Shown: positions 18,227 to 64,000 of the stretch, in pieces | Layout of the letters: each line of letters starts with the position of its first letter | How positions within the stretch are numbered: position 1 is the first letter of the stretch | Notes under the pieces: generated by a model | The model's input: the letters and a program-made list of their open reading frames with translations, nothing else | Told to the model about the DNA's origin: nothing | Database searches by the model: none | Translations under genes and position numbers: made by a program | Source: Agmasoma carcini (nom. nud.) | Lineage: Eukaryota; Microsporidia; Thelohaniidae | Assembly (NCBI GenBank): GCA_029232285.1 | Contig: JAOXFI010000048.1 | Coordinates: 21,489 to 85,488, forward strand | Length of the DNA stretch: 64,000 nt | Direction: 5' to 3'

Positions 18227-20815
18227 ATGTTTCATATTTTTTTAAAAACAATATTCTCAAAAACTACAATGATAATTCTCTTGCAATTAATAAGTGCATC
18301 AATACACATCTCTAAAAATTGCCTTAGAAAATTAAAAAACAAAGATGCTCTCCAATCACTCTTCAGTTCATTAAAAGGACAGACAGGGTGTGCTCCACTC
18401 TACAAATCTCAGAAGCACACTCAAAGAAACACATCTTACGAAAAAGAAGACCCTTTCAAAGGTTTAGATAAGTTATTAAATTTGGGAGGTGGATCATCAG
18501 GTACAGGCTTAACCGGCGGTACATCTTTAGTTCAAAGCCTATTAAACAACCAAATGAATCCCATAATGCAATCTATGTTACCACAAATGCAATATCCACA
18601 GGGTATGAATCAAAGTCCCCCTCTAGGATTCTCAAACGGTGATGCATGTGCTCAATGTATGAGCTCAAAACAATCAATTGGTGGTTCAATGTTACCTACT
18701 GGTATGCCATTTCAACCATATCCACAAACTGGTGGACCAAGCCCCTCAATTTTTCAAGGAACAGGTGGTGGACAATCTTATCCTCAAGGAGTAGTAGGTG
18801 GTGGACAATCTTATCCTCAAGGAATAGTAGGTGGCGGACAGGCTTACCCACAAGGAGTAGTAGGCGGTGGACAGGCTTACCCACAAGGAGTAGTAGGCGG
18901 TGGACAATCTTATCCTCAAGGAGTAGTAGGCGGTGGACAAACTTACCCGCAAGGAGTAGTAGGTGGTGGACAATCTTATCCTCAAGGAGTAGTAGGTGGT
19001 GGACAAACTTACCCACAAGGAGTAGTAGGTGGTGGACAGGCTTATCCTCAAGGCATGCCAAGTGGCCAAACCTACCAAGGATCCACACAACCACCCACTG
19101 GTTTTGTAGTTCAACCTCAAATTAGTCAACCTATTGTTCAACAACAAGCTATACCAACACCTCAAGTACAGCCTACTGCACCTGCAATGCAAACAGTTCA
19201 AGTTGCTCCAGCACCAGAACCAACTCAAGTTGTAAGCACTCAGCCTGAACCAGTTCCAGTACCACAAACATCTCAGGCAATGGTATCATCTCACCCTGTG
19301 CAAGAAACACCTTGCTCAGTATCACAACCAGCACAAGTTGATACACCTGTTCCAATGCCAGTTTCAATGGAATCTTCTGTACCTGCATCAGTTCCAATGT
19401 CACAACCAATTCAACTTATACTTACAACTGAACAACCACTTAGCCTTCAACCTTCTGTTTCACAGATGGGAGGTGGTAATGCTTTTGGCTCTTTACAACA
19501 AACATCGCCTTCAATGGGTCTTCCAATGGGACAACCCATGGGACAGCCTATGGGACAATCAACAGGTGGATTTTCTTCACAGATGTCAATGCCTCAAATG
19601 AGAGATTCAAATAATAGTGGCTATCAAGACCGTGGACAATATTCTTATTCCTCTCAAATGGATTCAATGGGATTTCAACATTGCGGAAGCGGTTCCGGAG
19701 CATCACCTTCAGGTGGATACTTTAATCAACCATTTGGTGGTTCTAATGGTTCAAATGGAGGTAGAGGCGGTCATCAATGTAGTAGATCTAATGGTGATGG
19801 CCATAATGGTTTTAATGGGCCAAATGGTAATATTAACATGGGATCATGTGGAAGGCATGATAGTGACTGGCTAAATAATTGTTCAAGATATAATAACCAT
19901 CAAAATTATCCATTATCACAGCGTTCGTTCAATGGACCTGGTTATAATAATAACTTTAACGGTAATCATCAAGGAGGTGGATACGGTGGCGGCTACTCAG
20001 GAAATGGAGGCAACTGTGGCTCTAGTGGAAATTATCAAAGCGGAGGTAACGGTGGTGGTTATTCAGGAAATGGAGGCAAATGTGGCTCTAGTGGTAATTA
20101 TCAAAGCGGAGGTAACGGTGGTGGTTATTCTGGAAATGGAGGTAACTACTCTGGAAATGATGGCTACTGCAACAACTCATATGGAAATTATCAAGGCGGA
20201 AGCAACGGTGGCGGCTATTCAGGAAATGGAGGCAACTGTGGTTCTAGTGGTAATTATCAAAATGGAGGAAACGGTGGTAATAATTCAGGTAATGAAGGCT
20301 ATTGTGACAATAATAACCAAGGAGGAAACGGTGGTAACAACCAGAATAATGGTGGTAATTGTAACTCTGATGGGAATAACCAAGGAGGAAACGGTGGTAA
20401 CAATCAAAACAATGATGGAAACTGTGGCTCTAATGGAAATAACCAAGGAGGAAATGATAACTACCAAAATGGTGGAAACCAATGTAATATCTCAAATGTA
20501 TACTATGATGATAATAATTATTGTGGAGATTGTAATAGTTGCAATCAAACCAATAATTTTGTTCCTTGTGAGAATAATTGCTGTAATTTTACCAATAATT
20601 ACAATAATAATCCGGGAAGCTGCTCTTCAAATGAAAACATAAACTGCAATCGAAACAATAGTAATAATAATAATACAAGATCAACGCAAGCCTCTTATGT
20701 CAGATATAATGATGATGGTGATGCCCGTATTGATGATGTCAAGGTAAGCTGCAAATGTTCGAAGAATGATCAAAAACTAAAGAATTGTGTTTGTAAAAGA
20801 CATGACGACCTTTGA
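18227..20815 (+). CDS. Secreted Gly/Gln/Pro/Asn-rich repeat protein, polar tube or spore wall candidate
   Basis: An 862-residue protein. A signal anchor or signal peptide (MIILLQLISASI) starts at Met15, so translation may begin at 18227 or 18269. The order after it: a Lys/Cys-containing N-terminal part; a Gly/Met-rich linker; nine copies of an 11-residue GGGQSYPQGVV unit (residues 180-278); a Pro/Gln/Val/Ser-rich region (about 280-450); a Met/Gly/Gln part with GQPMGQPMGQ; a Gly/Asn/Tyr repeat block (about 582-745) with spaced cysteines; and a Cys-rich end with CKCSKNDQKLKNCVCK. Signal peptide, tandem repeats, Pro/Gly/Gln bias and terminal cysteines resemble PTP1-type polar tube proteins and some spore-wall proteins. 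No PTP2-like neighbour is visible, so assignment stays tentative. Overlapping frames on both strands are shadows. Confidence 0.85.
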   Translation: MFHIFLKTIFSKTTMIILLQLISASIHISKNCLRKLKNKDALQSLFSSLKGQTGCAPLYKSQKHTQRNTSYEKEDPFKGLDKLLNLGGGSSGTGLTGGTSLVQSLLNNQMNPIMQSMLPQMQYPQGMNQSPPLGFSNGDACAQCMSSKQSIGGSMLPTGMPFQPYPQTGGPSPSIFQGTGGGQSYPQGVVGGGQSYPQGIVGGGQAYPQGVVGGGQAYPQGVVGGGQSYPQGVVGGGQTYPQGVVGGGQSYPQGVVGGGQTYPQGVVGGGQAYPQGMPSGQTYQGSTQPPTGFVVQPQISQPIVQQQAIPTPQVQPTAPAMQTVQVAPAPEPTQVVSTQPEPVPVPQTSQAMVSSHPVQETPCSVSQPAQVDTPVPMPVSMESSVPASVPMSQPIQLILTTEQPLSLQPSVSQMGGGNAFGSLQQTSPSMGLPMGQPMGQPMGQSTGGFSSQMSMPQMRDSNNSGYQDRGQYSYSSQMDSMGFQHCGSGSGASPSGGYFNQPFGGSNGSNGGRGGHQCSRSNGDGHNGFNGPNGNINMGSCGRHDSDWLNNCSRYNNHQNYPLSQRSFNGPGYNNNFNGNHQGGGYGGGYSGNGGNCGSSGNYQSGGNGGGYSGNGGKCGSSGNYQSGGNGGGYSGNGGNYSGNDGYCNNSYGNYQGGSNGGGYSGNGGNCGSSGNYQNGGNGGNNSGNEGYCDNNNQGGNGGNNQNNGGNCNSDGNNQGGNGGNNQNNDGNCGSNGNNQGGNDNYQNGGNQCNISNVYYDDNNYCGDCNSCNQTNNFVPCENNCCNFTNNYNNNPGSCSSNENINCNRNNSNNNNTRSTQASYVRYNDDGDARIDDVKVSCKCSKNDQKLKNCVCKRHDDL
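18764..19060 (+). repeat. Tandem repeat, 33-bp unit, nine copies
   Basis: Nine in-frame 33-base units encode GGG-Q-S/A/T-Y-P-Q-G-V-V. The Ser/Ala/Thr position varies and copies differ at few bases, so the array has been homogenised or expanded recently. Copy number is likely to vary between strains. Confidence 0.92.
19970..20460 (+). repeat. Gly/Asn-rich coding repeat block
   Basis: Imperfect coding repeats of about 22-24 residues with core GYSGNGGNCGSSGNYQ, degrading downstream into GGNGGNNQNNGGNC units. Each unit carries about one cysteine, giving regularly spaced cysteines suited to disulfide cross-linking. Confidence 0.85.
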
Positions 20816-25321: not shown

Positions 25322-27700
25322 TTACTTAATGAATTTCCTCTTCTCAAAGTCTAACAACTTGCTATCATGTAAACCTTTTATAATAATATAATATAATTTC
25401 TCTTTTCCTATTTCTATATTTTCTCTCTTAACAAACAAATAAATAATCTCTAAAATATTATTTTCTATACTTTCAAGAAATTTAACATTAATAAATGGCA
25501 TTTTACAAAATAACAGTAACAGCTTCTTACCTAAACAATATGCCATATTATACAAATAACCAAAAACGTATCCATTCTTATTCGAAAAATGTGGTTTTCT
25601 ACACATCTTTTTGGTTTGATCTAAAATATATTTTTTAGCGTTACATCCTTGATTACGACATGAAACTATAACAAATACTTTACCATAATGACAATCAAAC
25701 ATTCCACTTCCAATTATTTTTGTTCCACACCATGTTATAACCTTATTTGCACGCTCTTCAATAAAATTTCTTTCTTCTTCATTACATCTTACACAATCAC
25801 ATTTATCACTTGCTAAATTAAATTTAAAGAAATTATATTCAATCTTATTCTTGTTAAACGCCATGATATTATAAAAGTTTTGAATATTTTTCCATAATCT
25901 AATCAATTCCTTCTTACAATTTGTTAAAATAAGAATATCATCACAATAATATAAAACTTTACCACTAACAAGTATACTATTAAGAAAAGGCATCAAATAC
26001 TCTTGTATGTATATCGTTACTAAATGTTGACTAACATTAAGCCCTTGAGGAACACCCGTGATTCTTTTATAAAATTTACCATCATAATATGTATTAAAAT
26101 AATTAATGGCAAATTTAATTCTGGTCTTTAGCTTATCTGAAGAAAACGTAATACAATTGCCTTCTATATTAAAATGATTCTTCTTCAATGGCAAATCATT
26201 GTGTAAGTCAAATTCATCATCCATGTTTTGAGATGTTAACACACTTTTAATATAGCTTGGATTATCTACAGGTATTGATTTGAACTCTCTTGTCCAATAT
26301 TGCTGATCTTTAAACAATTTATCAATTAAAGGATTAAGCCTTTTTATATTTATTCTATCAAAACACTTCAAAAGATCAAACTTCATTATATATTTATATT
26401 GTTCATTATGTATTAAGTCTTCTAAGGTATTTCTCAAAGACCTTGATCCTCTTTCTTCACAAACCTGCTTTATATGCGGTACAAAATATTTCAATGAACT
26501 ATTATATGACGGATTGTCAAAGGTTTTGTTAAAAGAATATGCTTTAGGTTTAATTTCAGACTTATCAAGATAATTTGATTCACAATCTTCAATAGATTTG
26601 CCCCTATGAGAAGAATTACAAATAATTCTATAATCATTTCCTTTAGGTATAGCACGAAGCGTTGAATATTTTCTTTTAGCATATAACAGGGCCTTTCCAC
26701 TACAAGATTGAACGTAATTGTTACGTAAATGATCGTTAATAGCCTTTACCGAGTCAATATCATACTTCATCTTAATATAATAATCATATTCAGTTCTTGA
26801 ATTTGATTTAGGAAGATAATAAAAATATTTAGAACAAATATCAAGCAATGTTCTTGCTAATATCAGTAATAAATTTTCTTGAAACTTTCTAAGTTTTGGA
26901 ACAAGTGATTTAGGAATGTTATCACCAATTTTTATATTTAAATACAACCCTAATTCATGCTTAGTTATCTTTTCATAACAATTTCTCATAATCATAAGAG
27001 CTATTTTACCTTTCCAAATTGAAAATTGATTATATGTAAAAATTGTATTAAAACATTTTTTTGATAACATAAACAGAAAATCGATAATATTTTTTGCACT
27101 GATTAAACCATTAGAAGTTGTTTCTTTGAAGTGCTTTCTAATAATTGCACCCATCTTTAGCTTATTAAATTTTATACAAGCTTGTTCAATTCGATGTTCG
27201 ATATTTTTTAGAAAACAATCTCTTATTTTGACAATTGATAGGCATTCGTTCATAATACTATCCTTACTTAAAATTATATCACCTGAAATAACACTAGTTC
27301 TTTTTTTATTAAGTACATTCATTTCTTGATTATGATTGCATTGCAGCAACCCCCTTTCAAATGCAGTCTTAAGGGTAAAGTTCAATATTAAATATCTTTC
27401 TCTTGTATTTTCTACAATCACACAATCATATAAAAGATGTAGAGTCATTTCAACACCTAAAGATTTGAATATATTTAAATATTTCTCATCAGATATGTAT
27501 TTTCTAGCTATAGATGGGAAATTGTAGTCTCTTAATAATGTTTCAATCATTTCCATTGGTGCTTTTTCACGTTTTATATCAATTATAGCATTCTTAAAGT
27601 TTTTTATAAGAATGCTTTCATCCACATGCACATCTAAATTCAAATATTTCAGGTAATCCTTAAGAGTTACGAAATCCTTTAAATCAAAATGTGATTTCAT
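25322..27700 (-). CDS. TERT: Telomerase reverse transcriptase
   Basis: A 792-residue reverse transcriptase that copies the telomerase RNA template onto chromosome ends. TERT-specific order is visible: RNA-binding-domain CP/QFP-like block (about 200-265, including ITKHELGLYLNIKIGD), T-motif-like KYFYYLPKSNSRTEYDYYIK (291-310), motifs 1/2 LRAIPKGNDYRII (348-360), motif A KFDLLKCFDRI (Asp442), B' GVPQGLNVSQHL (549-560), motif C YYCDDILIL with the Asp587-Asp588 pair, motif D about 605-625, and the telomerase-type motif E ITWCGTKI (655-662). The T motif and WCG distinguish it from retroelement RTs. The frame is uninterrupted. A Cys-rich insert (CDCVRC, 634-639) precedes motif E. About 190 N-terminal residues could be a reduced TEN region. 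TTACC precedes the ATG. Downstream DNA is a transposon graveyard. Confidence 0.88.
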   Translation of the reverse strand: MKSHFDLKDFVTLKDYLKYLNLDVHVDESILIKNFKNAIIDIKREKAPMEMIETLLRDYNFPSIARKYISDEKYLNIFKSLGVEMTLHLLYDCVIVENTRERYLILNFTLKTAFERGLLQCNHNQEMNVLNKKRTSVISGDIILSKDSIMNECLSIVKIRDCFLKNIEHRIEQACIKFNKLKMGAIIRKHFKETTSNGLISAKNIIDFLFMLSKKCFNTIFTYNQFSIWKGKIALMIMRNCYEKITKHELGLYLNIKIGDNIPKSLVPKLRKFQENLLLILARTLLDICSKYFYYLPKSNSRTEYDYYIKMKYDIDSVKAINDHLRNNYVQSCSGKALLYAKRKYSTLRAIPKGNDYRIICNSSHRGKSIEDCESNYLDKSEIKPKAYSFNKTFDNPSYNSSLKYFVPHIKQVCEERGSRSLRNTLEDLIHNEQYKYIMKFDLLKCFDRINIKRLNPLIDKLFKDQQYWTREFKSIPVDNPSYIKSVLTSQNMDDEFDLHNDLPLKKNHFNIEGNCITFSSDKLKTRIKFAINYFNTYYDGKFYKRITGVPQGLNVSQHLVTIYIQEYLMPFLNSILVSGKVLYYCDDILILTNCKKELIRLWKNIQNFYNIMAFNKNKIEYNFFKFNLASDKCDCVRCNEEERNFIEERANKVITWCGTKIIGSGMFDCHYGKVFVIVSCRNQGCNAKKYILDQTKKMCRKPHFSNKNGYVFGYLYNMAYCLGKKLLLLFCKMPFINVKFLESIENNILEIIYLFVKRENIEIGKEKLYYIIIKGLHDSKLLDFEKRKFIK

Positions 27701-39183: not shown

Positions 39184-39894
39184 TTAAAACATTTTAGACC
39201 CACAATCATTATGAGAATTATCTTTACCATTTTTATCTATTTTATTTCTTTTCAAAATGATTTTAGGTTTTCTAAATTTTCTATTTTTTAAAATTATATT
39301 TAAGCTTTTAAATTCATCAGATTTTATGTATTTTCTGTCTAATAAATCACTTTTTAGTTCCAATGAATTATTGTTTATTCTTTTAACATTATCTATATTT
39401 CGTGGAGCCCAATGATTACGATCATTATCTTCAGCTTCTTTTATTTCTTCTAAAAATTTTTTTTTAATCCCAAGAGGTTCGACTGGTTCCCAAATAGCTT
39501 GAATACAAGAACCAGATTCTATATTACAAAATTTTCTATTGCTTAATTCATTTTTCAATTTTAACAAGAAGGTGCAGTCTTTGTTTACAGTGATATTTCT
39601 TGAACGCCAATAATTTTTGATCATATTAGGGCTTCTGCTCATTTTTAACGAGATTTCAGTCCATTTATTGCCATGAATCCTTTGTAGCTCAATCAGTTCA
39701 TTTATTTCAGACTCAGTTAGCGGATCTTTCTTCAATGCTGGATTTAAACAATTCAACCACCTCTCCTTACACTGACTTGCATCTTTACTTCTCATATTCT
39801 TACCGATAATTCTCCAGGAACCAACAGTACCGTGTAATTTAACAAGTTTCAATAATTTTTCGTCTTGCTGTTTCGTCCAAAAATTTTTAACCAT
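39184..39894 (-). CDS. R2R3-Myb-like protein, short paralogue
   Basis: A 236-residue protein with two Myb repeats in the same spacing as the 21281-22687 protein: Trp6, Trp27 and Trp46, then Leu59 in the first-Trp place, Trp78 and Trp96. Shared words include QCKERWLNCLNP, GNKWTEIS and MIKNYWRSRN. The C-terminal half is Lys/Asn-rich with a basic run (KNRKFRKPKIILKRNK), likely nuclear-localising. It lacks the long linker and C-terminal domain of the other protein, apart from a possible WEPVEP piece. CCC immediately precedes the ATG (39895-39897). It is the only intact gene in 23 kb of transposon debris, which argues it is under selection. Confidence 0.85.
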   Translation of the reverse strand: MVKNFWTKQQDEKLLKLVKLHGTVGSWRIIGKNMRSKDASQCKERWLNCLNPALKKDPLTESEINELIELQRIHGNKWTEISLKMSRSPNMIKNYWRSRNITVNKDCTFLLKLKNELSNRKFCNIESGSCIQAIWEPVEPLGIKKKFLEEIKEAEDNDRNHWAPRNIDNVKRINNNSLELKSDLLDRKYIKSDEFKSLNIILKNRKFRKPKIILKRNKIDKNGKDNSHNDCGSKMF

Positions 39895-50696: not shown

Positions 50697-52046
50697 ATGT
50701 ATTTTATTTTTCTTTTGTATATTACATGCAAGTTTAATGCTGGATCTGTAAGAGAGTCAATAGTTGTAAGATTTAAAACTGATGGAACTAAATGTAAAAA
50801 AAGAAATGGTGATTGTTATAGAGCTACAACGTGTTTATCAACAACTATGAAAAATAATATTACCAATTTTAAATTACTAAATGATAATAAATTATGTGAA
50901 GTGATCTATCAAGGAAATAAAAGTAAAACAAAATCAATTATAAAAGAATTTAATCTCTGTGATTATCATTATTTAACAATTTTAAGTAGAATAAATGATC
51001 TATGTATGCCTAAAAGAGAATCTTATGGTATTATGCCATCATTAATTGATTCTCTTCATATCGCTATAAAGATATATATAGGACATTTCAGTAAAAGTAT
51101 AAATAATGAAATTAACAGATCTTTTTCATTAGAAGGGGAATGCAAATTATATTCTGTTGAAAAGAGTGATATGGAAGAAAAAAGCAAATTGTTCAATTAT
51201 AGAAATTCAAAAAAAATTTCTTTCAACCCATTTAAAAATTATACTTCATATATTTTATTTGGAAATTTGTATATTTATCTTATGGATAATAGCTTTGAAA
51301 AACAAAATAATCAAGTATCAGATGATGAAAGTACTGAATTTACCCCTTGTCATAAAAAACAAAAAGTGAGCCATTTAAATAATGACTATATTGATATTAA
51401 TCAATATCTATTTGATTGTTTTGATGATTTTGATGATTTTGATGATTTTAGTAAATATTCAATTGATGAAAATATTGAAAATGATATCAACGATATTATA
51501 CCAATTTTTAGTTCAAGAATATTTGTTTTGGGGTTTAGTGAAACACTTAATCAGTACTTGTTATTGGAACTACCCAAAGAAATATCTAACGATAATTTAT
51601 TTTCGTTACATTATAAATTAAAATACGATATTAAACATAATACTAGATTCATTTTCTTCATTTTTAAGGATGTTGAAAATGGTCAATTGTTGAAAAATGA
51701 AAATTTCTTAGGTTTTAATTTTGTTTCAGCTAAAGAAGATACAAAGCCATGGCAAAGCTATGATAAGCTTAAAAAGACAAATATGGTTTTTCAAACGTTA
51801 TTCATTGATGATCATTTACTTATAATTGAAAGTCATAATATAAAATATTTGATAATTGAATATGCTCCATTTGAAAATTTAAGAATTAAAAATACTTGTT
51901 TGTTTTTGGTACCTTTAATTTTGAAAAGCAATAATAAATACCAGGTAGATTACAAAGGTGTGTTTATTCAATATTCTACAGATTCAATATTTAAGAATTT
52001 AAAGATTCATATTATGTCAAAAAATGATTTAGAAAATAATTATTAA
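50697..52046 (+). CDS. Secreted protein of unknown paralogous family, member A
   Basis: A 449-residue protein with a good signal peptide (MYFIFLLYITCKFNA). Domains by comparison with the two paralogues: an N-terminal Cys-containing domain with C33...C40, LCDYHY (87-92) and GIMPSLIDSLHIA (111-123); a linker and a FGNLYIYL piece (188-195); an acidic/polar region ending in CHKKQK (218-223); a Phe/Asp repeat (DDFDDFDDF, 243-251); and a C-terminal domain opening with SRIFVLGF (273-280), then FFIFKDVEN (320-328), NENFLGF (334-340) and LVPLILKSNNKYQVD. No known family recognised. ATCC precedes the ATG. The signal peptide together with an NLS-like cluster suggests an exported protein with a nuclear destination, which is inference only. 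Confidence 0.85.
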   Translation: MYFIFLLYITCKFNAGSVRESIVVRFKTDGTKCKKRNGDCYRATTCLSTTMKNNITNFKLLNDNKLCEVIYQGNKSKTKSIIKEFNLCDYHYLTILSRINDLCMPKRESYGIMPSLIDSLHIAIKIYIGHFSKSINNEINRSFSLEGECKLYSVEKSDMEEKSKLFNYRNSKKISFNPFKNYTSYILFGNLYIYLMDNSFEKQNNQVSDDESTEFTPCHKKQKVSHLNNDYIDINQYLFDCFDDFDDFDDFSKYSIDENIENDINDIIPIFSSRIFVLGFSETLNQYLLLELPKEISNDNLFSLHYKLKYDIKHNTRFIFFIFKDVENGQLLKNENFLGFNFVSAKEDTKPWQSYDKLKKTNMVFQTLFIDDHLLIIESHNIKYLIIEYAPFENLRIKNTCLFLVPLILKSNNKYQVDYKGVFIQYSTDSIFKNLKIHIMSKNDLENNY

Positions 52047-52808
52047 TATGATAGATCAATTTATTACTAATTACAATAAAATAAAATATTTTAAGATTTT
52101 TTTAATTATTTGTGATCAATGATTCAAATATTAATTATGAATTGATGGTAATCAAAAATAGTTCATTTAAAAACATTAATTTTATTAATTTATACAAATA
52201 TTTTGTATTGTTATATGTAAGATAAATGTTTTTAATTGATTTTTAAAATAATTTTTGCATTTTTGTAAGATTTTTTTACAAATATAGTAAAAAAATCTAT
52301 TCAATAACAATTATTTACATATTGATTGCAAAAATGATCAGGGTATTCAAAAAACCTATATCATTGAATATCAGTAAATTAGAATTATAAATATTGTGCT
52401 TAACTATGTTTATGTATAATTTTATAAGGGAACTATAAATATCAAAGAATTTATATCAGTAATGCTAGCCCAAGGAGAGAAAGTCAGATAGATAAAATAA
52501 ATCCATTTATATAAGGTTTATATATTTACGTAGACATTATACGCAATACCACTAAGGTATAATAGTTACAGTTATAACTGTCTTAAGATTTGTAACCTCA
52601 ATATATCAATAAAATATATTAATATATAATGAATTCAAAAAATTAATGTCATAACATTTTGATTTTGGAATTTTTTATTTATTTTATTGTAAAATATGAA
52701 AAATCAACTAATCTGACTAACTTACCCTTTTTAGATTTCATCTACCCCTTTATCAATAACTTATGATCAACTCCTTTAAAATTATTATTCTTTTTTATAT
52801 TTTTACCC
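52047..52808. other. Spacer between family members A and B
   Basis: AT-rich. A patch at about 52500-52600 (TACGCAATACCACTAAGG ... ACTGTCTTAAGAT) looks like a worn minus-strand copy of the dispersed repeat. AATCTGACTAACTTACCC near 52700 repeats the GATTAGTCAG motif in inverse. Confidence 0.4.
52806..52808 (+). promoter_or_regulatory. CCC motif abutting the member B start codon
   Basis: TTTTTACCC runs directly into the ATG at 52809, fixing the start although the N-terminus there is a weaker signal peptide than in members A and C. Confidence 0.55.
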
Positions 52809-54206
52809 ATGCTACTTAAGTTTTTAAATCATATGTATTTTCTCCGTTCAAGCACAGAATACTCCGAAAATCGTACAATAATTTCAATTAATACTCTTGA
52901 AATTTGCAAAAAAGACTTTCGTAAATGTCTTAATCATATAAATAATAATATAATTAGTAAAATAAAAAATTATAAATTGGAAAATGAAAATAATAGCATT
53001 ATTGTAGTACATTGTAATAAAATTAATAGCAGGTCCAAAATAGATATAAAAAAATATGATGTATGTATTTTCCATTACATAAAATATTTATTATTAATTG
53101 ATTACAATAATCATTCACAAGGATCACATCAAGGTGTTAAACCATCATTAATTACATCATTTTATATTGCTTCAAAAATGTATTTTGAAGATCATCTTAA
53201 AAGTAAAAAAAACTTAAATATTAGAATAAATGATGATTTTAGCTCTGCAATAATAAATACAATTAATAATATGTTTTCCATTAGAGAACGCATTTATAAT
53301 CAAAAAAAAATTAATCAACTGAAAGAAATTTACAATTTAACAAATATACTTGATTTAGGTGATTTAATTTTTATTTTTAGTGAAAAATACAATAATGATA
53401 TTGAAATCCTAAATAAAAGGCCACTTGATGATGATAATACACCATCCGAAAACAATGCTTGTAAAAAACAAAGAAAAGATGAAATTCTTCTTGATTCTTT
53501 AGATAATTATGAAATATCTGATGGATTTCTGGATTATGTTTTAGATTCTAATCTTTTCAACATTGAAAACATTGAAAATGACACCTTAACTCCATCAGAT
53601 TACTCTCATGACACAGAAAATGATAATTTTGAAGATAAAAAAGAGAAAAATTCTGGATCAAGAACGTTCGTACTAGGATCTTTAAATGATATCGATAAAA
53701 TAATACTTTTTGAATTACATTCTGGAATAACCAATGAAAATTTAATTCATTTAAAAAAATATTTAAATATTTCAAAATATTCTGCAAGGATGATTATTTT
53801 TGTCTTTAAAAACGTTGAAGACATTGAATTAATAAAGAATAAAAACTTTTTGGGGTTTTACTGTTGTACCCTTGAAGAATCACTTAAAGTATTAAATAAT
53901 GAAATTGATAATTTTAAATGTGAAAATAGGTTTGAAACGGTATATAAAGGGATTAATAGGAAGTTTCTAACCATTAAATGTAATGATAAAATTTATTTAT
54001 TACTTGGTTCTGAAAATATATTCACCAAATTTGCAGCACAAAGTTGTCATCATATATATTTTGTTCCTTTAGTATTTAATGAAAATGGAAAATATCATAT
54101 AGATGTTAAAGAGAAGATATTTTCTCTATCTAATCATCACGCAGAAGACATAACAGTAGAAAGTATTCATCTTATAAATGAAGATATGATAGAAGATATC
54201 AATTAA
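52809..54206 (+). CDS. Protein of unknown paralogous family, member B
   Basis: A 465-residue protein. N-terminus MLLKFLNHMYFLRSS is moderately hydrophobic. Family signature: C33...C40, VCIFHY (85-90), GVKPSLITSFYIA (109-121), LGDLIFIF (183-190), KRPLDDDNTPSENNACKKQRK (203-223; shown here as KR, a 14-residue acidic spacer, then KKQRK), which has the form of a bipartite nuclear localisation signal, and the C-terminal SRTFVLG (284-290), FVFKNVED (331-338), NKNFLGF (344-350), then VPLVFNENGKYHID. Same strand as member A with 762 bases between, consistent with tandem duplication followed by deep divergence. Function unknown. Confidence 0.85.
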   Translation: MLLKFLNHMYFLRSSTEYSENRTIISINTLEICKKDFRKCLNHINNNIISKIKNYKLENENNSIIVVHCNKINSRSKIDIKKYDVCIFHYIKYLLLIDYNNHSQGSHQGVKPSLITSFYIASKMYFEDHLKSKKNLNIRINDDFSSAIINTINNMFSIRERIYNQKKINQLKEIYNLTNILDLGDLIFIFSEKYNNDIEILNKRPLDDDNTPSENNACKKQRKDEILLDSLDNYEISDGFLDYVLDSNLFNIENIENDTLTPSDYSHDTENDNFEDKKEKNSGSRTFVLGSLNDIDKIILFELHSGITNENLIHLKKYLNISKYSARMIIFVFKNVEDIELIKNKNFLGFYCCTLEESLKVLNNEIDNFKCENRFETVYKGINRKFLTIKCNDKIYLLLGSENIFTKFAAQSCHHIYFVPLVFNENGKYHIDVKEKIFSLSNHHAEDITVESIHLINEDMIEDIN

Positions 54207-56349
54207 ACTACTTTTCCTTAATATTTATTCATTTTGATAAAGATAACTTAGTATGTTGGAAATTAGATATAAATATCGTGTAAAATGTAAGCATTTTAAT
54301 TAATAACTAAATAAATTATGACAGGCATTATATCCTGCAAAATTATAAATATAATTGTTTGGTGTATTAAGCGATTATTATTTTTACAAATTAATTGTGA
54401 TTCAAAGATATTCAAAAAATATAAAAATAAGTATTTTTGATTTGAAATTGTTAATGTTTTCGAATGTGGTTTAATAAATTAATAAATATTCAACAATAAC
54501 ATCTTATGACAAAATTCTAAATTTGTTACTGATATTTTTATAAAGCACAAGATGAAAATATACGGATAACGTAGTTGAATTTAATGCTTTATTGAATAAT
54601 ATAGTTAATAATTTCTATTCCGCTTACCATCAGGTATTTTTCAGATAATAAATCATATATATACATCACAAAAAACACACAATTAAAATATATAAAAAAA
54701 ACAAAATTTATGTTTTTTTTATTTTACGTGCAAAATTTTTAATAGTTTTACTTAATCAATAGGGAACACGTCCAACCTTGTTCCTTACACAACATAAGGC
54801 ATATTTCTTCATTTATAAAAATAATTTGGCAATATTTAAGGTCAATAGAATTTCACACAGTATAAACCTTCAGATTAAGACCTAAAATTTTCCCTAAAAA
54901 TAAGTGATTTAAATATTATGATTTTTATTTCAGATTCTGAATTAGTAGTGGGTTTACAAGTATATAGGTTTATTATTATTGAACTCAAAACATTTATTCG
55001 GTATTTTGTGTAAAATTAATTGAGAAATACAGTCATAAGTATAATGATAAAGGATCAAACACGGTAAAAATTCTTTGAATTCAATATGTTGGTAATAATA
55101 GGCTCTGAGGTATAAGCAAATAGATCAGACAATGATGAATTGCAATTTTAAGTTATATTATGAAAATCTATTTTAATAGTCAAGCATAATGTATAACCGA
55201 AGTTAAAGATAGCTTAATACAGCTTTTTTGCAAAATAATTTGTAATAAACACGAATACACTATTCTATCAACAAGTTTTTGCAAAAAAATCAATACATAC
55301 CGTAGAAGCACTAATACATAAAAGGTTTAACAAATTAGGTTTTAGAAATGTTACAATTATGTTATAAATACTGCTTTGAAGATTAAATAATAGAATTTAT
55401 AATTAAAATGCTTAAATTTTAAAAAATTTTTAAAGGAACAAATTAAACAAGGAAAAGAGCGGGTTGTAGAGTACAAGTTTTTAAGCAGCAAAAAATATTC
55501 AAACATGTAAATGATCATCAACCATAAATATTTGTTTTAAAAACATTGAAACACTAAAAAAAAATTTTTAAAGATCTCAAAACACATATTTATGATGAAC
55601 CGAATATAAGCATTAAAACTCCACAAAAATTCTACAAAATTGCTATAAAAATTTGAATATAAAAGAGATAAATTATTTTAGCTTTATCTTTCAATATAAT
55701 TTTTGCAGCAATATGAAAACCCACGACCTTGCATTATTTTTATAAAAGAACAAAGAAGAAGATTAAATTATAAAACTTGAATTTTAGTTTATTTTTGCTT
55801 TAAAAAAATTAAAACAATTTGATCGCATATCGGTGTTGATAAAAACAAACTTTTTATATCTGAAAATAAACGTTAATTTTTAAAAAATAGGGGTTTAGAA
55901 GATTACATCGTAAAAGTATATAAATTCAATTTTTATAACGTAAAAAGAATAAAGTCTTATTTAATTTTTGGAGTGGTTATAGAACACATAAATTTCTGAT
56001 TTATTATATTGAAAAAAGCTATAGGAAAATAATATATATCAGTTAAAAGTCTTTAAATAATTTCTAATGGATTTTGGATTTATCTTGCATTATCAAATAA
56101 TGAATTGAAAACCCATAAAAATATAAATATTTTAAACCCATTAATTCACACGTAAAGATTTAAATGTCACTTGACTTAGTAAAAAGATTAAAGAGGGTTA
56201 TGTCTTATACATAAAAAGTAAATTATGCCTTTTTTAGATGAACTCCAGTTTAGAAACTAAATGAAGTATAAAAAGTCATTTGAATTATATCAAATTTTCT
56301 TAAATTAACTTTTATCTTTTTAAATTTTTTAAGTAAAATCTCAACATAT
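54207..56349. other. Gene-free AT-rich stretch
   Basis: No gene, RNA or clear repeat recognised. Some slightly less biased patches near 55200-55700 may be worn transposon DNA but no block was identifiable. Confidence 0.4.
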
Positions 56350-57200
56350 CTTTCACGCCTAAAAACCAGTATTCCACAGGGTGTTGTTCTGTTTTACGAT
56401 ATGAAAAAAATTTAAAGAATTTATATCACGTAATAAATTTTGAATAATTCTCTTGCGTTTTCCTTTATTTTTTCAACATAATTCTAAATATTTTGATAGG
56501 CACATGATAACACCCTATCATTTCTTGATATTTTAACATTTGCTTCTAACCATGATTTCTCAATATTTTGGGTATGTGCTCCGGTTAAGAGGTTTATAAA
56601 ACCCCGTTAATAATTTTCTGTAAAATGAACAAAATTCAGATCTGATAGATTTTAATATGCTGGCCATTCATCCAAAAATATAATTTAACTATCTTCAACC
56701 TCTATTTGAATAATTTGGGTTAAGGTTGATCTGTTCGTTTTTCAACGTAAAAATATCACCACCTTTTATCAAACTAAAGCCCTACAAGCCATCTACTCTA
56801 TTACCATGATTCCTATTATTTACAACATTGGTTTTATTATCAACCATCAAAATTCTTTTATTTTCTCTTAACATTAACTTCCTTATATTAGATTTATTAC
56901 GCTCAAGAAACTTAGACTCATCTATTTAAACATGTTTTTATTGTCACTTTCATTTAAAACTGATGTGATGCCGAAATGATTTCTGAGCATAAGTTTTTAA
57001 ACTATTTGAAAATAGTATTAATACATCGCTCAGTTAAATAATGTACTATTGTAAAATCATATGTAAGCTCGGTATATTGCAAATGTTAAGTTTTGTTTTA
57101 AAACTTATATTTAGATCTAAAGATTAAAAATTTTAAAAGTAATATTTGGAAACAATACTGTTAGCAATATTATATCAGCGTCTAGACGTATTTTTATAAA
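56350..57200 (-). mobile_element. ISXO2/Merlin-like transposase relic 6
   Basis: Minus-strand blocks, reading from about 56940 downward: IDESKFLERNKSN; RNHGNRVDGL-stop-GFSLIKGGDIFTL; a DEWPAY-like piece (about 56665); GAHTQNIEKSWLEANVK (about 56525-56580, with shifts). Order and spacing match ISXO2-like transposases, from first Asp through the hTxxIE block. Multiple stops. Confidence 0.75.
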
Positions 57201-58249
57201 ACCTTTCCATTTTTTATTCTTGCTTCTTTTAAATCTGTTCCGCTTTGGATACAGTTTTGTATATTATTGATATCATTTAATAAACCATGTTCTTTAAGAA
57301 ATACTATAATTAGTATTTCTTTACTACTAATTATAGTAAAAAAACACTATAGCTAACATAATAAATGCTTTTAGTGCTGATATATATGATAATGGTATTT
57401 TAAAAATAATTCAAATAAACATTTTAAGGCATATAAAAAAGATAAAAAATTATTTTCAAATTTCCAACGTTTTTATTATTTGATTAATAATTTTATTCAA
57501 ATATAATATTGAATATAATAGCGTTTATATTTTACTTAATATCTAATTTTTTTAATACGTAAAAACATTTAACAATTTATCAGATCGCAAAGTAAATTAG
57601 ATATTTACTCCAATTCAAAACATTTCAATTTTTTTCAGATCGAAAAACAGAACAGAACCTTCCACAGCCTTATTTTTTAGAAAATTTTCTATTTAATTAT
57701 ATATTATTTATTCATTGATGAAAAGGCTAAAACATTTATTGTTTTCACAGCAGATACATTAATAAATACATTCATCTAACTCATGACATTACTTAAGAAC
57801 TTTTAAGAAACAGAAAATCTATTTCAATAACTATAAATACTCATCTTCAAACAATTCTTCATGATTTTATCGTACTGACGTATGCTTTCTTGATTAATTA
57901 TCACAATTGTCTCGCAAGGAACTTTTGTAAAAAATTAAGACTTGTGAAATTGTCTTAGATATATCAATAAATATTATTGAAATCTTTTTATTTTGATCAC
58001 ATAATTTTGTTGGAAACTTACTAGAATGTAAGTGAACAACCTTTTACTTCATTATTTATTGATCTTTTATATGTAAAGATAGTTATGAGGCAATATTTTA
58101 ATCTTTTTGTTTTGATAACACAGACCGAAGATCTTATATTTTGATCAATAAGAATGAATGTATATTAGCTAGAGTAAAACATAAGAGACAAAAACAATAA
58201 AGAATTGGTTTATTGCTAAATAAATTTATACTTAAAAAAGATATGTTAA
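57201..58249. other. Gene-free stretch
   Basis: AT-rich. A short perfect-looking inverted repeat TAATTAGTATTTCTTTAC / ACTAATTATAG at 57310-57340 is the only local structure seen. Confidence 0.35.
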
Positions 58250-58950
58250 GGTTGTTATAATCGGATGCTTTGAAACCATACAAAGAAACATAGACAGATA
58301 TGTATTAATCATAAATCAAATTTAACCCAATTTATAAATAGATAAAGGAAGGCATATTATTTTAACCCTTATATAATGATGCCAGGGTAATACTAACCAT
58401 GATAATAATGTATTTAATTGGTCAATCAAATTGTTCACTAATTAAAAATTTTTGACATTATACCATCAACAAACTCTCCATTAAACAAATTAGGTGGTCC
58501 GAGATTAGTTGTACAAGTTGATGAAACCATGTTGAATTATAAGGTTAAAAGTCATAGAAGAAGAAATCTAACTGATAAAATTGATTCAATATCCATATTT
58601 GAGTGTAATAAAAAAGTTTCTAGATCATTTGCAAATACAATTCCAAACAAAAAAAGAATGCGGTAATTACAAAAATTTGTAGTCAAATATACATTGAAAA
58701 CATGACTTGGACTGATGATCATAGAAGCTATCGGGGTTTTAATCAACATCATTATTTTTATTAGGTGTATGTTACAAAAATAGATATTTGAATCTTACCG
58801 ATTGGGTTGATATATATCATTGAGTCTTTTAATAATTAAATAGAATTCGCAATAAAAAGAGAACAGGTACCAGCAACAAAGTAGAGAAAGGTTTTTGAAA
58901 AATAATAATTTATATACATTTTAGTTTAATAAAAAATAATAAAGAAAATA
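58250..58950 (+). mobile_element. ISXO2/Merlin-like transposase relic 7
   Basis: Plus-strand frame KLGGPRLVVQVDETMLNYKV then KSHRRRNLTDKIDSISIFEC (58492-58610), the least decayed first-Asp block of the relics. TWTDDHRSYRGF (58705-58740) is the second-Asp block. A third piece with IESFNNLIK...REQGTSNK follows at about 58820-58890. A stop separates the parts. A 66-codon minus frame here is a shadow. Confidence 0.78.
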
Positions 58951-59265
58951 TAAGAGGAGGTAAATAAATGATTAAAATTCAAAACTTGATCTTATATTTC
59001 CTTTTGATTATATTTAGAATGGTTTCAAATACTTTTAAAATGTTCATAACTACACAACATACTCGATTTTGATACAATACTTTATCAATATCAAAAATAA
59101 AATATTCTTTAATAATATTGGGCTGATGATGTATTTTTAACAAATAAATCAATAATATAATCCGATCATTTCAACTAAAAAACCAGGTTTATTTTGTGAC
59201 CCAATTTAATAACAACAAAAAAATAAATTTAAGTCGAAACCCATAAAAATACAAAATTATTTTAT

Positions 59266-60642
59266 TTATTTTTCTAGAATTTCTTTTTGTAAAACATGAA
59301 ATGATATATTTTCTCCTATGTCTCTATCAAACCTAATAACATCAGAATTGATATCTAATTGATATTTATTGTTGTCATTCAGAAATAAAGGTATTAAAAA
59401 AGACCAAGTCCTTAATTTTTTAAATAATTTTGGAAAACCAATCAATAAATAAAGTTTGTTATGATATTCAATAACGAATAGTTTGTTATCGATAGAGAAG
59501 GTATGATAATACAACTTTGTTTCTTTAAAGTTATCAATACAATTTTGTATATTGGATAGATCTTGAGTGAGAGGAAATTTAAAACCTATAAAATTTTCTT
59601 CTTTTAGTAAATCGTCATTATCAACATTTTTAAAGATGAAAAATAAGATTTTTTCACTATTTCTTGAATAGTTTAGCTTAAAATGCAAAAATTTTAAATC
59701 TTTGTGATCCAAAGATAACTTAGGTATTTCAAAAAGTACATATCTGTTGATTACCTGGAAAAATCCATAAACGAACACTCTTGAATCAGAATATTGACTT
59801 TCTTTATGACCAAAGTGTTCAAAATTAAAATTATTAATAAAATCATCTACTTCTTGATCATTAAAATTGTTATTTTGACTTCCTTGATTCAAAATATCTT
59901 CATAATCAACATTTAAACTAGAAGTATTAATATTATTCATATCACTAAAACCAGAAGGATTACAATCTTGATTCTGTTGTTCTATATTCTGTCTTTTAAT
60001 AGAAATATTCTTATCTTCAGATTCTGTCATGACTCTATCTATGGTTCTTTTGTTTCTTTTATCGTTATCACTTCTATTCCAAATAATTATTAGATCTCCC
60101 ATTGATATGACCTTTGTTTTCTCATTTATAAGTTCAGGAAAAGGTTTTGCCCTTTTTCTAGAATAAAACTCTGTTCTTATTTTCTTAATTATATCATGCT
60201 GTGATTGATTATCTAAATATTTTTTTTCTGGTAAAAAGTGATGACTAGGTTGTTCATCAGATTTTTCCTGATAATAATTTGTAAATATATTTTGAGCGAT
60301 ATATAAAGAATTGATTAAAGATGGTTTAATACCTGAAGAAATACCGTTGGGCAGCGATAAACTATCAATTGTCAATAAAAATCTTGTGTAATGAAATCCA
60401 CATAAATTGTGTTGTCTTTTCTTATTATTTTTACCATTATATTTTACTTGAAGTGTTTTATAGTCAATTATATTATAAGATATAAGCTTTTGTTGAATAG
60501 TTGATTCTAATGTTTTGAAGGCATTTAAACATTGATTTTCTTTACAATCCGAATATTCAAATACATACTTTACAGATAGTAACTTAAATTTTGGTTTTGA
60601 ACTAAATATTTTTGATATGTATGCGATCAAAATTAGAAACAT
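59266..60642 (-). CDS. Secreted protein of unknown paralogous family, member C
   Basis: A 458-residue protein with signal peptide MFLILIAYISKIFSS. Family signature: C33 and C38, LCGFHY (80-85), GIKPSLINSLYIA (104-116), MGDLIIIW (181-188), a basic pair KR at 198-199 and KRQ (216-218) separated by an acidic Ser/Thr/Glu spacer, and the C-terminal SRVFVYGF (287-294), ILFFIFKNVDN, EENFIGF and FLIPLFLNDNNKYQLD. Opposite strand to members A and B and about 5 kb away, with two transposon relics between. TTACC precedes the ATG. Function unknown. It shares more with A than B in the C-terminal domain. Confidence 0.85.
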   Translation of the reverse strand: MFLILIAYISKIFSSKPKFKLLSVKYVFEYSDCKENQCLNAFKTLESTIQQKLISYNIIDYKTLQVKYNGKNNKKRQHNLCGFHYTRFLLTIDSLSLPNGISSGIKPSLINSLYIAQNIFTNYYQEKSDEQPSHHFLPEKKYLDNQSQHDIIKKIRTEFYSRKRAKPFPELINEKTKVISMGDLIIIWNRSDNDKRNKRTIDRVMTESEDKNISIKRQNIEQQNQDCNPSGFSDMNNINTSSLNVDYEDILNQGSQNNNFNDQEVDDFINNFNFEHFGHKESQYSDSRVFVYGFFQVINRYVLFEIPKLSLDHKDLKFLHFKLNYSRNSEKILFFIFKNVDNDDLLKEENFIGFKFPLTQDLSNIQNCIDNFKETKLYYHTFSIDNKLFVIEYHNKLYLLIGFPKLFKKLRTWSFLIPLFLNDNNKYQLDINSDVIRFDRDIGENISFHVLQKEILEK

Positions 60643-61489
60643 GGTAATTTCTTTAAAAAACTTTTTTAAAAATTGGATAATTAATTAAATAAATGTTTTA
60701 TATTAAAAGTTAGATAATTAATTAAATATTTTTAATTATTTTCATAAAAAACCACAATCAAGGATTTATATTTAATTAATAAAAATGAATATTAAAAATA
60801 TCAGTGATTACATTTTTGTTTCAAAGAGGATTTATTAATATATTATTTTGATAGAGAGTATATTTGTAATTAATACATCACAATCTCAAGATAAGGAATT
60901 TGAGATTTTTGAGAGATAGCCATTATTTAATAAAATTGTTTTTTCAAAATATTTTACAACATCTAAATAATTATGAATTGGAATTATTTTATGTATTATT
61001 TTATTAATCTTAATAATTTAGATGTTGTAAAATATAAGATTTTAATAATAGTTATATGATTTAGCAGGCTTTAGAACCTGTTAAAGTTTTGAATATATTT
61101 CCTTGAATCTAAGTTATAATACAAAATATATTTGAATGTACAGTATTAAAATAAGAAATACACTACAAAAATATATTTGAGGCTTGGAGACATAAAATAA
61201 AAAATAAATATTCTTATGATTATATCAGAGGTAATTTTATTGTCATTTTTTTATATTAACTCTTTTGGTATGCTTGATAGAAAAAACCAAATGCCTTAAA
61301 AAATTCATTTGTTTTTCTCTCCAATCAAACTAAAAAAAAACAGAAACAAATAATATAAACGATAAAACATGATAATAATTTCAATAAAAATCATTTTTGC
61401 TAAATTATTAGGGCTTTTTCAAATTGTGAAATTAGTGTGTAATAATAAAAAATAACAATGGATTCATTTAACGATTGTAAAAATCACTT
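60643..61489. other. Gene-free stretch with a hairpin
   Basis: AT-rich. Contains the stem-loop listed at 60951-61033. At 61420 AAATTAGTGTGTAA resembles the 3' end of the dispersed repeat at 62053, so a copy boundary may lie here. Confidence 0.4.
60951..61033. repeat. Long hairpin, about 21-bp arms
   Basis: ATTTTACAACATCTAAATAAT (60951-60971) is nearly the exact reverse complement of the sequence ending at 61033, with about 40 bases between. It lies some 300 bases upstream of member C on the opposite side. Possibly a tiny MITE or an RNA hairpin. Confidence 0.7.
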
Positions 61490-62060
61490 TTATCAAGCTA
61501 CTATAAAAACACACACTAAACAAAAGCGGCAAAACTCTTGGCCGCTTATTTCCCGTTTTTCCAAAAACAGTCTATAATATCAGTTATTACTTACAAAACA
61601 ATGAAAAGCCGAACCAGCAAGTAAAAACACCTAAACTCAGTAATATCAAATAAAGAAGCTTAAAGAAGAGAAAAATAGCAGGTGGATAACACAACCATAC
61701 GCAAAAGCGCTTTGATAGCAAGTGGGTTGGTTTGTTAAGTTATTTTGAAAAGGTTTCAGCAAAACTTTAGAGACACCAAACTATAGGATGCGGTTGCAGA
61801 TGAGCTTGGTGCTATTACGCACCCTAACCATCATATATCTTCGAAATCCTGAAGTGGCATTTCCCTACTGATAGAAGAAATGTCTGTCACTGACCACAAA
61901 CTGGTTTTCTAGAGTGAACAAGATATTCAATATCCACTTGGACTTGCTTATACCTCTGGCAGGACCCAACCTGTTAAAGTCTAATTAGCCGCTGCTTTTA
62001 TACAACGTTACCTCTCTGCACCACGTAGAGATCTGGACTCTTCGCAGAGCTGCGAAATTA
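61490..62060 (+). repeat. Dispersed repeat family, best-preserved copy
   Basis: The most GC-rich and probably youngest copy. Blocks: AGCGGCAAAACTCTTGGCCGCT (a hairpin, listed as its two arms GCGGC/GCCGC), GAACCAGCAAGTAAAAACACC, GGATAACACAACC, ACTTTAGAGACACCAAAC, AGCTTGGTGCTATTACGC, AGTGGCATTTCCCTACTGAT, ACCACAAACTGGTTTTCTAG, CCAACCTGTTAAAGTCTAAT, TAGCCGCTGC, CACGTAGAGATCTGGACTC and TCGCAGAGCTGCGA. A useful seed for building the family consensus. Confidence 0.7.
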
Positions 62061-64000
62061 GTGTATAAACTAAATTAAACAGATCTTCAATACAAGACTA
62101 CATACAAAAGAAAAATTAATAATATAAAGGAAAATGTAGTAGTTAGAGAATTAAATAAATCAACATCAGTAATAAGAATTTAATTAAAAAATGATGAATT
62201 ATACGTAATTGTTTACCTTAAACTGCGTATTTTCTTAAATAAAAATTATTAAGTCTGCAAATACGCAATAGACTATAATTTTAAAACAACAACCATTTAT
62301 AGACAAATACCATTTAAGTGATTTTTTCTGATTAAAATTTATTTAACATTTATAAAAACCCTAAAAGACAATTATATAAACTAAAGTATAAATTGATGTT
62401 TATTAATGAAATTGTATAATATAAATTGAATTTTTATTTGCATTTTATGATCAAAAAATCAAAATTTTTAAATTTCATTTTAAAAAACATAAGTATTCTT
62501 AAATTAGAGTGTTAGGATCTAGGTAAGCTACCTTGGATAAAAAAATTATTTATAACATGTTTATAGGAGTGAACAATATTTTTTAAGAAGTTAAGTTTTT
62601 AATAAAAAAATCAAAAAATGTTAACTTTTACAACTAATTTAATTGTTTTCAAAATATATGTATTACTTACAAAGTAAAAGCCAAATTATTTGATTTATAT
62701 TTCACTTATCATTTTTTCTTATTTATATCTACTATTTCAGCAAACAAATATTCTAGTATTTTAATATACACTAACTAACTGAAAAAGACCACCATTAAAT
62801 TATGATTCTTTTGTCAATTTATATAAATTTATATTATCAATGTTAATATTTTTTATATGCTATTATATAACATAAAATATTTTAATCATATATGAAATAA
62901 GTAATAATTGACATCAATTCTTTTTTAGAGCTTTTCGATAAACCATCGGTTTTTCCTTCACATTCATTTATATGTTGCTTAGAAATTATTTTTAAACATA
63001 TTATGATCAATTATCCGATTTGTGATACTTTCAGGCCATAACATTTATTAAAAATAATTGTTATTTTATTATTTAAAAGTTATTAATCAAAATACTTATG
63101 TATAAGTTACTTACTATAAAACAAAATTTTATTGTCAAATGATTTATTGGGTTTTAACCAAAATTATATATTTTTAAAATATGGTAATTTACATTATAAT
63201 TACAAAATAACTTTTAAGTAGAGACATAAGGTTAAAAGCAAATTTTAAATTTTGGTATTTTACATCAAAATATTTACAGAATCGATTTAAAAATGAAAAA
63301 AAACTATGTAAGATCTCAGTATATGATTGTGTGTATAATAAAGCTAATTTTTTATTTTAACTTAATATATTTCAAAGTTATTTAAGGAAAATAAAACATA
63401 AACTTCGGGAAAACCGGGTTACTTTATCTTGTTAATAGTATTGTAAGAGAATATTTTTTTAATTTATGCTGCGTGTGCATGATTGGTTTCATCTTAAGAG
63501 CAGTCTTAAGAATTTTCTTTTATAATGCCAGATATATTTTTTTTTATCATTTATTAAATTATTGTTCTTCATAGCGAGTTTGTAATTTTTTTGAATTTTC
63601 TAGTGTAGTTATTATGGCATCTCTTATTTCCTTGTTCATTAATTGAATTCTTAAAAGTTTCATTTTCAACAATAATCTTATCAGAAATATCATAAAATTA
63701 TTTTTATATTTAAAAACTAGCACTACCAAATAAAAATTAGAATATTGCGAATAAAAAAGCTATCTGTATTTATATGGTTTAAGACAAGCTGATTTTGGTA
63801 TTAAAACATTGTCGTTTGAACATAACACAACACCTTTTAAAATTTTGTACAATTTAATAAAAAGTTGTAATATTATTAATAAATAAGATTTTTTTGATAT
63901 TCAATTAATATTTTGTTATTCAAGTAAATTTTGAATCATAAATAATTTTCTTTTGTAAAGCATGATGGTTTCAATATGAAATAAGCCGCAATTACATTAA
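62061..64000. other. Gene-free AT-rich end of window
   Basis: No gene, RNA, transposase block or clear repeat recognised on either strand. Confidence 0.45.

What the first reader, a model, noticed from the sequence alone, without database searches (positions are those of the whole stretch)
50697..60642. Three-member unknown protein family with signal peptides and NLS-like clusters
Seen: three proteins of 449, 465 and 458 residues align over their full length by motifs (LC-x-FHY, G-x-x-PSLI-x-S, GDLI, a basic cluster after an acidic spacer, SR-x-FV-x-G, F-x-FK-x-V-E/D, NF-L/I-GF, VPL...N-x-KY-x-D) but are otherwise highly diverged. Two have clear signal peptides. In member B the basic cluster is a textbook bipartite nuclear localisation form. 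Inference: secreted proteins that reach a host nucleus, evolving fast by local duplication. No known family was recognised.
Basis: partly seen in the sequence, partly recalled or inferred. Interest (0 to 1): 0.82.

Follow-up and report, generated by a model that had tools for sequence, protein, structure and literature searches.

The report
Orphan secreted-protein family in a microsporidian
A microsporidian parasite carries a small family of diverged, apparently secreted proteins with no recognised relatives; they may act on the host cell, but the evidence that they enter the host nucleus is weak.

Summary
ORFs A (449 aa), B (465) and C (458) are homologous over their length at 28-30% identity. 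Seven loci were found in the genome, a lower bound: A, B, C, complete D and E on contig C64, and two halves (Fn, Gc) at the ends of C6 and C64. C is closer to the C64/C6 genes (45-53%) than to its neighbours, so the window trio is not a fresh local duplication. No relative or known fold was found, within stated limits. Strong signal-peptide-like starts: 4 of 6. New here: C-x4/6-C-x42-47-C-x2-H-[FY], with Pro at H+23, in 6 of 6 N-terminal halves and 0 of 65 other ORFs. The best of five AlphaFold models makes this part beta-alpha-beta-beta-beta-alpha (pLDDT 78-89; the others were much poorer). The nuclear reading is weak: the bipartite rule is met at the motif only in B, and 19 of 65 unrelated ORFs also meet it. 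Codon-model omega is below 1 in nine of nine pairs tested, two not distinguishable from 1. Best reading: a small lineage-restricted secreted, probably host-exposed family.

The parts
50697..52046 (+). member A, 449 aa; strong N-terminal hydrophobic run; KKQK in the linker
52809..54206 (+). member B, 465 aa; weak signal peptide; bipartite NLS form in the linker
59266..60642 (-). member C, 458 aa; strong N-terminal hydrophobic run; closest to the C64/C6 members
50793..50969 (+). A residues 33-91: C-x6-C-x47-C-x2-H
52905..53075 (+). B residues 33-89: C-x6-C-x45-C-x2-H
60391..60546 (-). C residues 33-84: C-x4-C-x42-C-x2-H; in the better-modelled part of the N-domain
51354..51365 (+). A residues 220-223 KKQK, basic patch in the linker
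53415..53477 (+). B residues 203-223, two basic clusters around an acidic spacer (bipartite NLS form)
59989..60060 (-). C residues 195-218, KRNKR then an acidic spacer and KRQ (only two basic residues in the second cluster)
59788..60072 (-). C residues 191-285, linker; residues 191-280 modelled at pLDDT 23-37, taken as disordered
51498..52043 (+). A C-terminal domain
53646..54203 (+). B C-terminal domain
59269..59796 (-). C C-terminal domain

Best explanation
A small, lineage-restricted family of secreted two-domain proteins of a microsporidian, most likely released toward the host cell. Shown: homology; at least seven loci; the invariant Cys/Cys/Cys/His set; a linker of varying length; A and B as long-branched lineages and C with the C64/C6 genes. 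Inferred: the N-terminal hydrophobic run sends the protein through the parasite's secretory pathway; the linker is disordered; the N-domain is held by a metal site or disulfides at the Cys/His positions; the C-domain or the linker motif binds a host or parasite partner. Nuclear entry is an option for A, B and C, not the default for the family.
For: Signal-peptide-like starts in 4 of 6 N-termini against 6 of 65 other ORFs. No strong hydrophobic stretch beyond residue 30 in 6 of 7 rows (19-residue means up to 1.27). Lineage restriction: member C gave no hit at E<=0.1 (6474 candidates) and the five-member profile none at E<=1 (the 7994 best word-sharing candidates) among about 5.8 billion clustered proteins, while a housekeeping protein of the same window finds Pancytospora, Glugoides, Nucleospora, Hepatospora, Enterospora, Vairimorpha and Nematocida. 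D, E and Gc lie on the same strand within 11 kb of C64. Seven of nine pairs reject omega = 1 in the direction of constraint (pairs share sequences), so these are real genes. Published pattern: host-exposed Nematocida proteins are enriched in signal peptides or TM segments, large families and clade-specific proteins (PMC5423893, passages).
Against: No proof of secretion: no SignalP, no proteomics, and B and E have poor signal peptides. Member E has a stretch with mean hydropathy 1.69 beyond residue 30, just over the customary 1.6 for a membrane segment (recalled). Seven loci are fewer than the 10 used in print for large families. The homologue search misses relatives near 30% identity: A, B and C share only 2-3 exact 5-residue words pairwise.
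Confidence: 0.55

Rival explanations
1. Host-nuclear effectors: after secretion the linker's basic clusters bind host importin and the protein acts in the host nucleus.
For: K-[KR]-Q is kept in 6 of 6 N-bearing members and the upstream KR in 5 of 6 inside an otherwise divergent linker. B fits a bipartite signal; A (KKQK) and C (KRNK) have monopartite matches there, and both have strong N-terminal hydrophobic runs. Precedent: NbRBL28 of Nosema bombycis has a signal peptide and NLS and was found in the host nucleus (PMC9224602, passages).
Against: D, E and Fn have no classical match in the motif. Bipartite matches anywhere in 19 of 65 and monopartite in 26 of 65 other ORFs, against bipartite in 2 of 7 family rows (B, and C at residue 140). 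In D-Fn and D-E the motif is also conserved at silent sites (0 of 24 and 1 of 36 same-residue codons differ), so gene conversion or recent copying explains part of it. The member with the best NLS has a weak signal peptide.
Confidence: 0.22
2. Proteins of the parasite's own secretory route, surface or spore, not exported to the host cytoplasm.
For: A signal peptide alone does not tell host export from surface or wall; E has a borderline membrane-like stretch.
Against: No match to a known wall, polar-tube or enzyme family in Pfam or NCBIfam, a prokaryote-oriented library. Divergence and clade restriction fit host-exposed proteins better, which is inference.
Confidence: 0.2
3. The conserved KR pairs are dibasic cleavage sites that separate the two domains in the secretory pathway.
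For: KR in 5 of 6 and K[KR]Q in 6 of 6 at the start of the linker between two domains.
Against: The genome search found one subtilase (window 3559-4755) and no kexin P-domain, though the P-domain query had one positive control genome of 14.
Confidence: 0.05

Closest known systems
Microsporidian host-exposed large gene families (NemLGF, PanLGF, EbrLGF; PMC5423893 and PMC10393165, passages read)
   Same: Signal peptides, clade restriction, local duplication, mostly no known domain or fold
   Different: Seven loci found here against the 10 or more used to define those families; no sequence of those families was fetched or compared
Nosema bombycis ricin-B-lectin-like NbRBL28 (PMC9224602, passages read)
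   Same: Signal peptide plus basic NLS-like stretch in a divergent, duplicated family
   Different: No ricin-B domain hit here; NLS form absent in D, E and Fn; localisation untested
THAP C2CH zinc finger (PMC6004289, PMC6944463, passages; spacing, fold and residue numbers recalled)
   Same: Order of ligands, C-x4-C-x42-C-x2-H-[FY] spacing in C, D and E, and a Pro some 20 residues later
   Different: No family-wide Trp (none in B or Fn); C-x6-C in A and B; modelled as beta-alpha-beta-beta-beta-alpha; no Pfam THAP hit

Membership tests
[quoted passage not shown]
   7 loci (5 complete, 2 halves) by four protein queries; the tool calls its counts lower bounds
Microsporidian large gene family (published definition) | Signal peptide or TM in at least half of the members | tested here: met
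   4 of 6 N-termini by a crude hydrophobicity rule, no SignalP
Microsporidian host-exposed proteins | Clade-specific | tested here: inconclusive
   No hit (proteins; viral and prokaryote contigs); relatives near 30% identity would be missed
Microsporidian host-exposed proteins | Physically present in the host cell | not testable with these tools
   No proteomics or imaging
Classical bipartite NLS | Two basic residues, spacer 10-16, then 3 basic of 5 | tested here: not met
   Met at the linker motif in 1 of 6 (B only); C has a match elsewhere (residue 140); 19 of 65 background ORFs match
THAP domain | C2CH ligand set | tested here: inconclusive
   C-x4/6-C-x42-47-C-x2-H in 6 of 6; x6 in A and B exceeds the recalled limit of 4; metal binding untested
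THAP domain | Conserved P, W and F residues | tested here: not met
   B and Fn contain no Trp
THAP domain | AVPTIF box | tested here: inconclusive
   [GS][IV][KM]P[ST][LI]I with Pro at H+23 in 6 of 6; only loosely similar
THAP domain | Profile match | tested here: inconclusive
   No Pfam THAP hit; HMMER filters drop weak matches, and the genome search had no positive control
DUF1609/InterB and ricin-B lectin families | Pfam match | tested here: not met
   Pfam scans of A, B, C and D, E, Fn, Gc at E<=10 listed neither

The most novel reading that the evidence does not exclude
A microsporidian family that exports a C2CH, THAP-spaced metal-binding domain of its own fold into the host cell, with an acidic-basic linker that sends some members into the host nucleus to act on host chromatin or transcription.
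Probability: 0.07. Interest if true: 0.8.

Novelty: new member of a known kind. Interest (0 to 1): 0.37.

Why it matters
If the Cys/His set binds metal, this is an unrecognised domain signature that can be searched for in other microsporidian proteomes, and it gives a small, tractable set of genes for testing how such proteins reach the host. If it does not, it is one more orphan secreted family of the sort found across the group.

Tried and rejected
Protein homology, PDB sequence, Pfam and NCBIfam, viral and prokaryote contigs (74, 75): no credible relative. Weak hits dropped as chance: CHB_HEX_C E 0.0096 for whole A and 0.0014 for one of six C-domains; DUF1402 E 0.016 for one C-domain; DUF6941 E 0.075 for B; Mrpl_C E 0.069 for Fn; Interleukin-15 E 0.022.

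PEST degron: score 5.1 in B, 4.6 in A, 3.1 in E, -0.2 in D, -5.1 in Fn, no valid region at C's motif; 6 of 65 background ORFs reach 5: rejected as a family trait. Kexin cleavage: no P-domain found. Nei-Gojobori omega of 0.55-0.87 over nine pairs was superseded by a codon model allowing for AT-rich codon use. Flank against coding: E-Gc 13 of 146 flank and 52 of 477 coding sites differ, so that pair evolves near its flank rate; D-Fn 33 of 151 five-prime flank (138 gap columns, poorly alignable) and 98 of 648 coding. THAP in the own genome: nothing, but its controls were silent too. SSU rRNA family: no match.

Full report
Setting. The window is the last 64 kb of contig C26 of a 4.26 Mb, 69-contig genome, 21-32% G+C in 4-kb steps. 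A Nop2-type methyltransferase at 16694-17617 matches microsporidia best: among the named top rows Pancytospora epiphaga (66%), Glugoides intestinalis (66%) and a record labelled as the caddisfly Arctopsyche grandis (67%) (120 of 4035 rows shown). I infer an unnamed relative of that group; no row shown is above 68%.

Family. A, B and C are homologous over their whole length. Own-genome searches with A, C and E found the same seven loci; the B query missed Fn. Outside the window these are D (C64, 473 aa), E (C64, 521 aa), an N-half at the end of C6 (Fn) and a C-half at the end of C64 (Gc). tblastn over the window plus 200 kb found only these loci at E<=0.05. The two halves lie at contig ends on matching strands and break at either end of the linker, so they may be one gene; against that, Fn groups with D and Gc with E.

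Relationships. The tree puts C with D, E, Fn and Gc (100/99), and A and B on long branches whose place the program calls unsure. Identities: C-D 47-51%, D-Fn 69%, E-Gc 78%. E and Gc share 146 aligned bases of three-prime flank with 13 differences, after which the flanks part.

Selection. Codon-model omega: D-Fn 0.40, E-Gc 0.58, D-E 0.39, C-D 0.28, C-E 0.20, C-Fn 0.22, D-Gc 0.63, A-C 0.13, B-C 0.007 (the last two saturated; B-C ran to the limit) (9 of 21 pairs). Seven reject omega = 1; E-Gc and D-Gc do not. These are gene-wide averages; single sites were not tested, so local positive selection is not excluded.

Anatomy. N-terminal hydrophobic run, then a domain with C-x4/6-C-x42-47-C-x2-H-[FY] and a Pro exactly 23 residues after the His in 6 of 6. 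The tight pattern, written from the family itself, occurs in 0 of 65 other ORFs and 2 of 6000 shuffled members; the loose form in 0 of 65 and 26 of 6000. In the best of five models, from six sequences, the first 80 residues reach pLDDT 78-89: strand, helix, three strands, helix; the other four models have much lower means. Three Cys and one His, an odd Cys number, fits a metal site better than disulfides alone; this is inference. The linker is unmodelled (pLDDT 23-37 over C residues 191-280) and carries the basic motif; the C-domain holds FFIFKNVDNDDLLK-like blocks.

Nuclear signal. K-[KR]-Q is in 6 of 6 and the upstream KR in 5 of 6. Only B meets the bipartite rule there; A and C have monopartite matches; D, E and Fn have none. 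Background rates are high (19 and 26 of 65). The motif is conserved at silent sites in D-Fn and D-E (0 of 24; 1 of 36), whereas C against D and E shows ordinary silent change (4 of 22; 4 of 25) with 22 and 25 of 34 residues identical, so some constraint at protein level is likely.

Context in print. Host-exposed microsporidian proteins typically bear targeting signals, are clade-specific and lie in expanded families, and three of four nucleus-specific N. parisii proteins had predicted signal peptides (PMC5423893, passages). NbRBL28 and NbSPN14 of Nosema bombycis reach the host nucleus, the latter without a predicted NLS (PMC9224602 and PMC11741654, passages). So the general idea is established and this family is a candidate of that kind. 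A search for papers holding both 'microsporidia' and 'THAP' returned seven; by title none describes a microsporidian THAP protein (listing only).

Limits. The homologue search relies on shared 5-residue words: overlapping pairs at about 46-78% identity share 9-75, pairs with A or B only 0-4. It argues against close relatives among the proteins held, not distant ones. The signal-peptide measure is crude. The background is 65 non-overlapping ORFs of at least 150 aa from 254 kb (69 before family members were removed), some of which may not be genes.

Noticed in passing
window 61425-62068: A dispersed repeat of about 626 bp between 18-nt near-identical direct repeats; 55 matching pieces across the genome, itself included, most covering a 300-bp core; no Rfam match.
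   Followed up: partly
window 62052-62371: Short relics (71-72% identity) of a Tc1/mariner-like element whose 1.25 kb copy with a Tc3-type transposase ORF lies just downstream of E on C64; about 40 long matches genome-wide, 40 of 90 candidates scored.
   Followed up: partly
window 56572-57506: Unidentified broken sequence between B and C, 70% identical, in opposite orientation, to C64:142021-142970 near gene E; no Pfam match for the two pieces tried. Both family clusters have it.
   Followed up: partly
window 25322-27700: 792-aa reverse transcriptase (RVT_1 E 1.2e-13); could be telomerase, but only a weak group II-type match was found.
   Followed up: partly
window 3559-4755: The only subtilase the search found in the genome, with a weak I9-type propeptide match.
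   Followed up: partly
G000 contig C53 start: The TTAGG x4 pattern matches only here; TTAG x6 has 204 matches on several contigs, which fits the TTAG telomeres reported for this clade (PMC13174016, passages). C53 may be host DNA.
   Followed up: partly
window 28000-50000: 22 kb with few ORFs apart from a Myb protein (39184-39894).
   Followed up: no
window 18227-20815: 862-aa Gly/Asn/Gln-rich repeat protein without a Pfam match.
   Followed up: no
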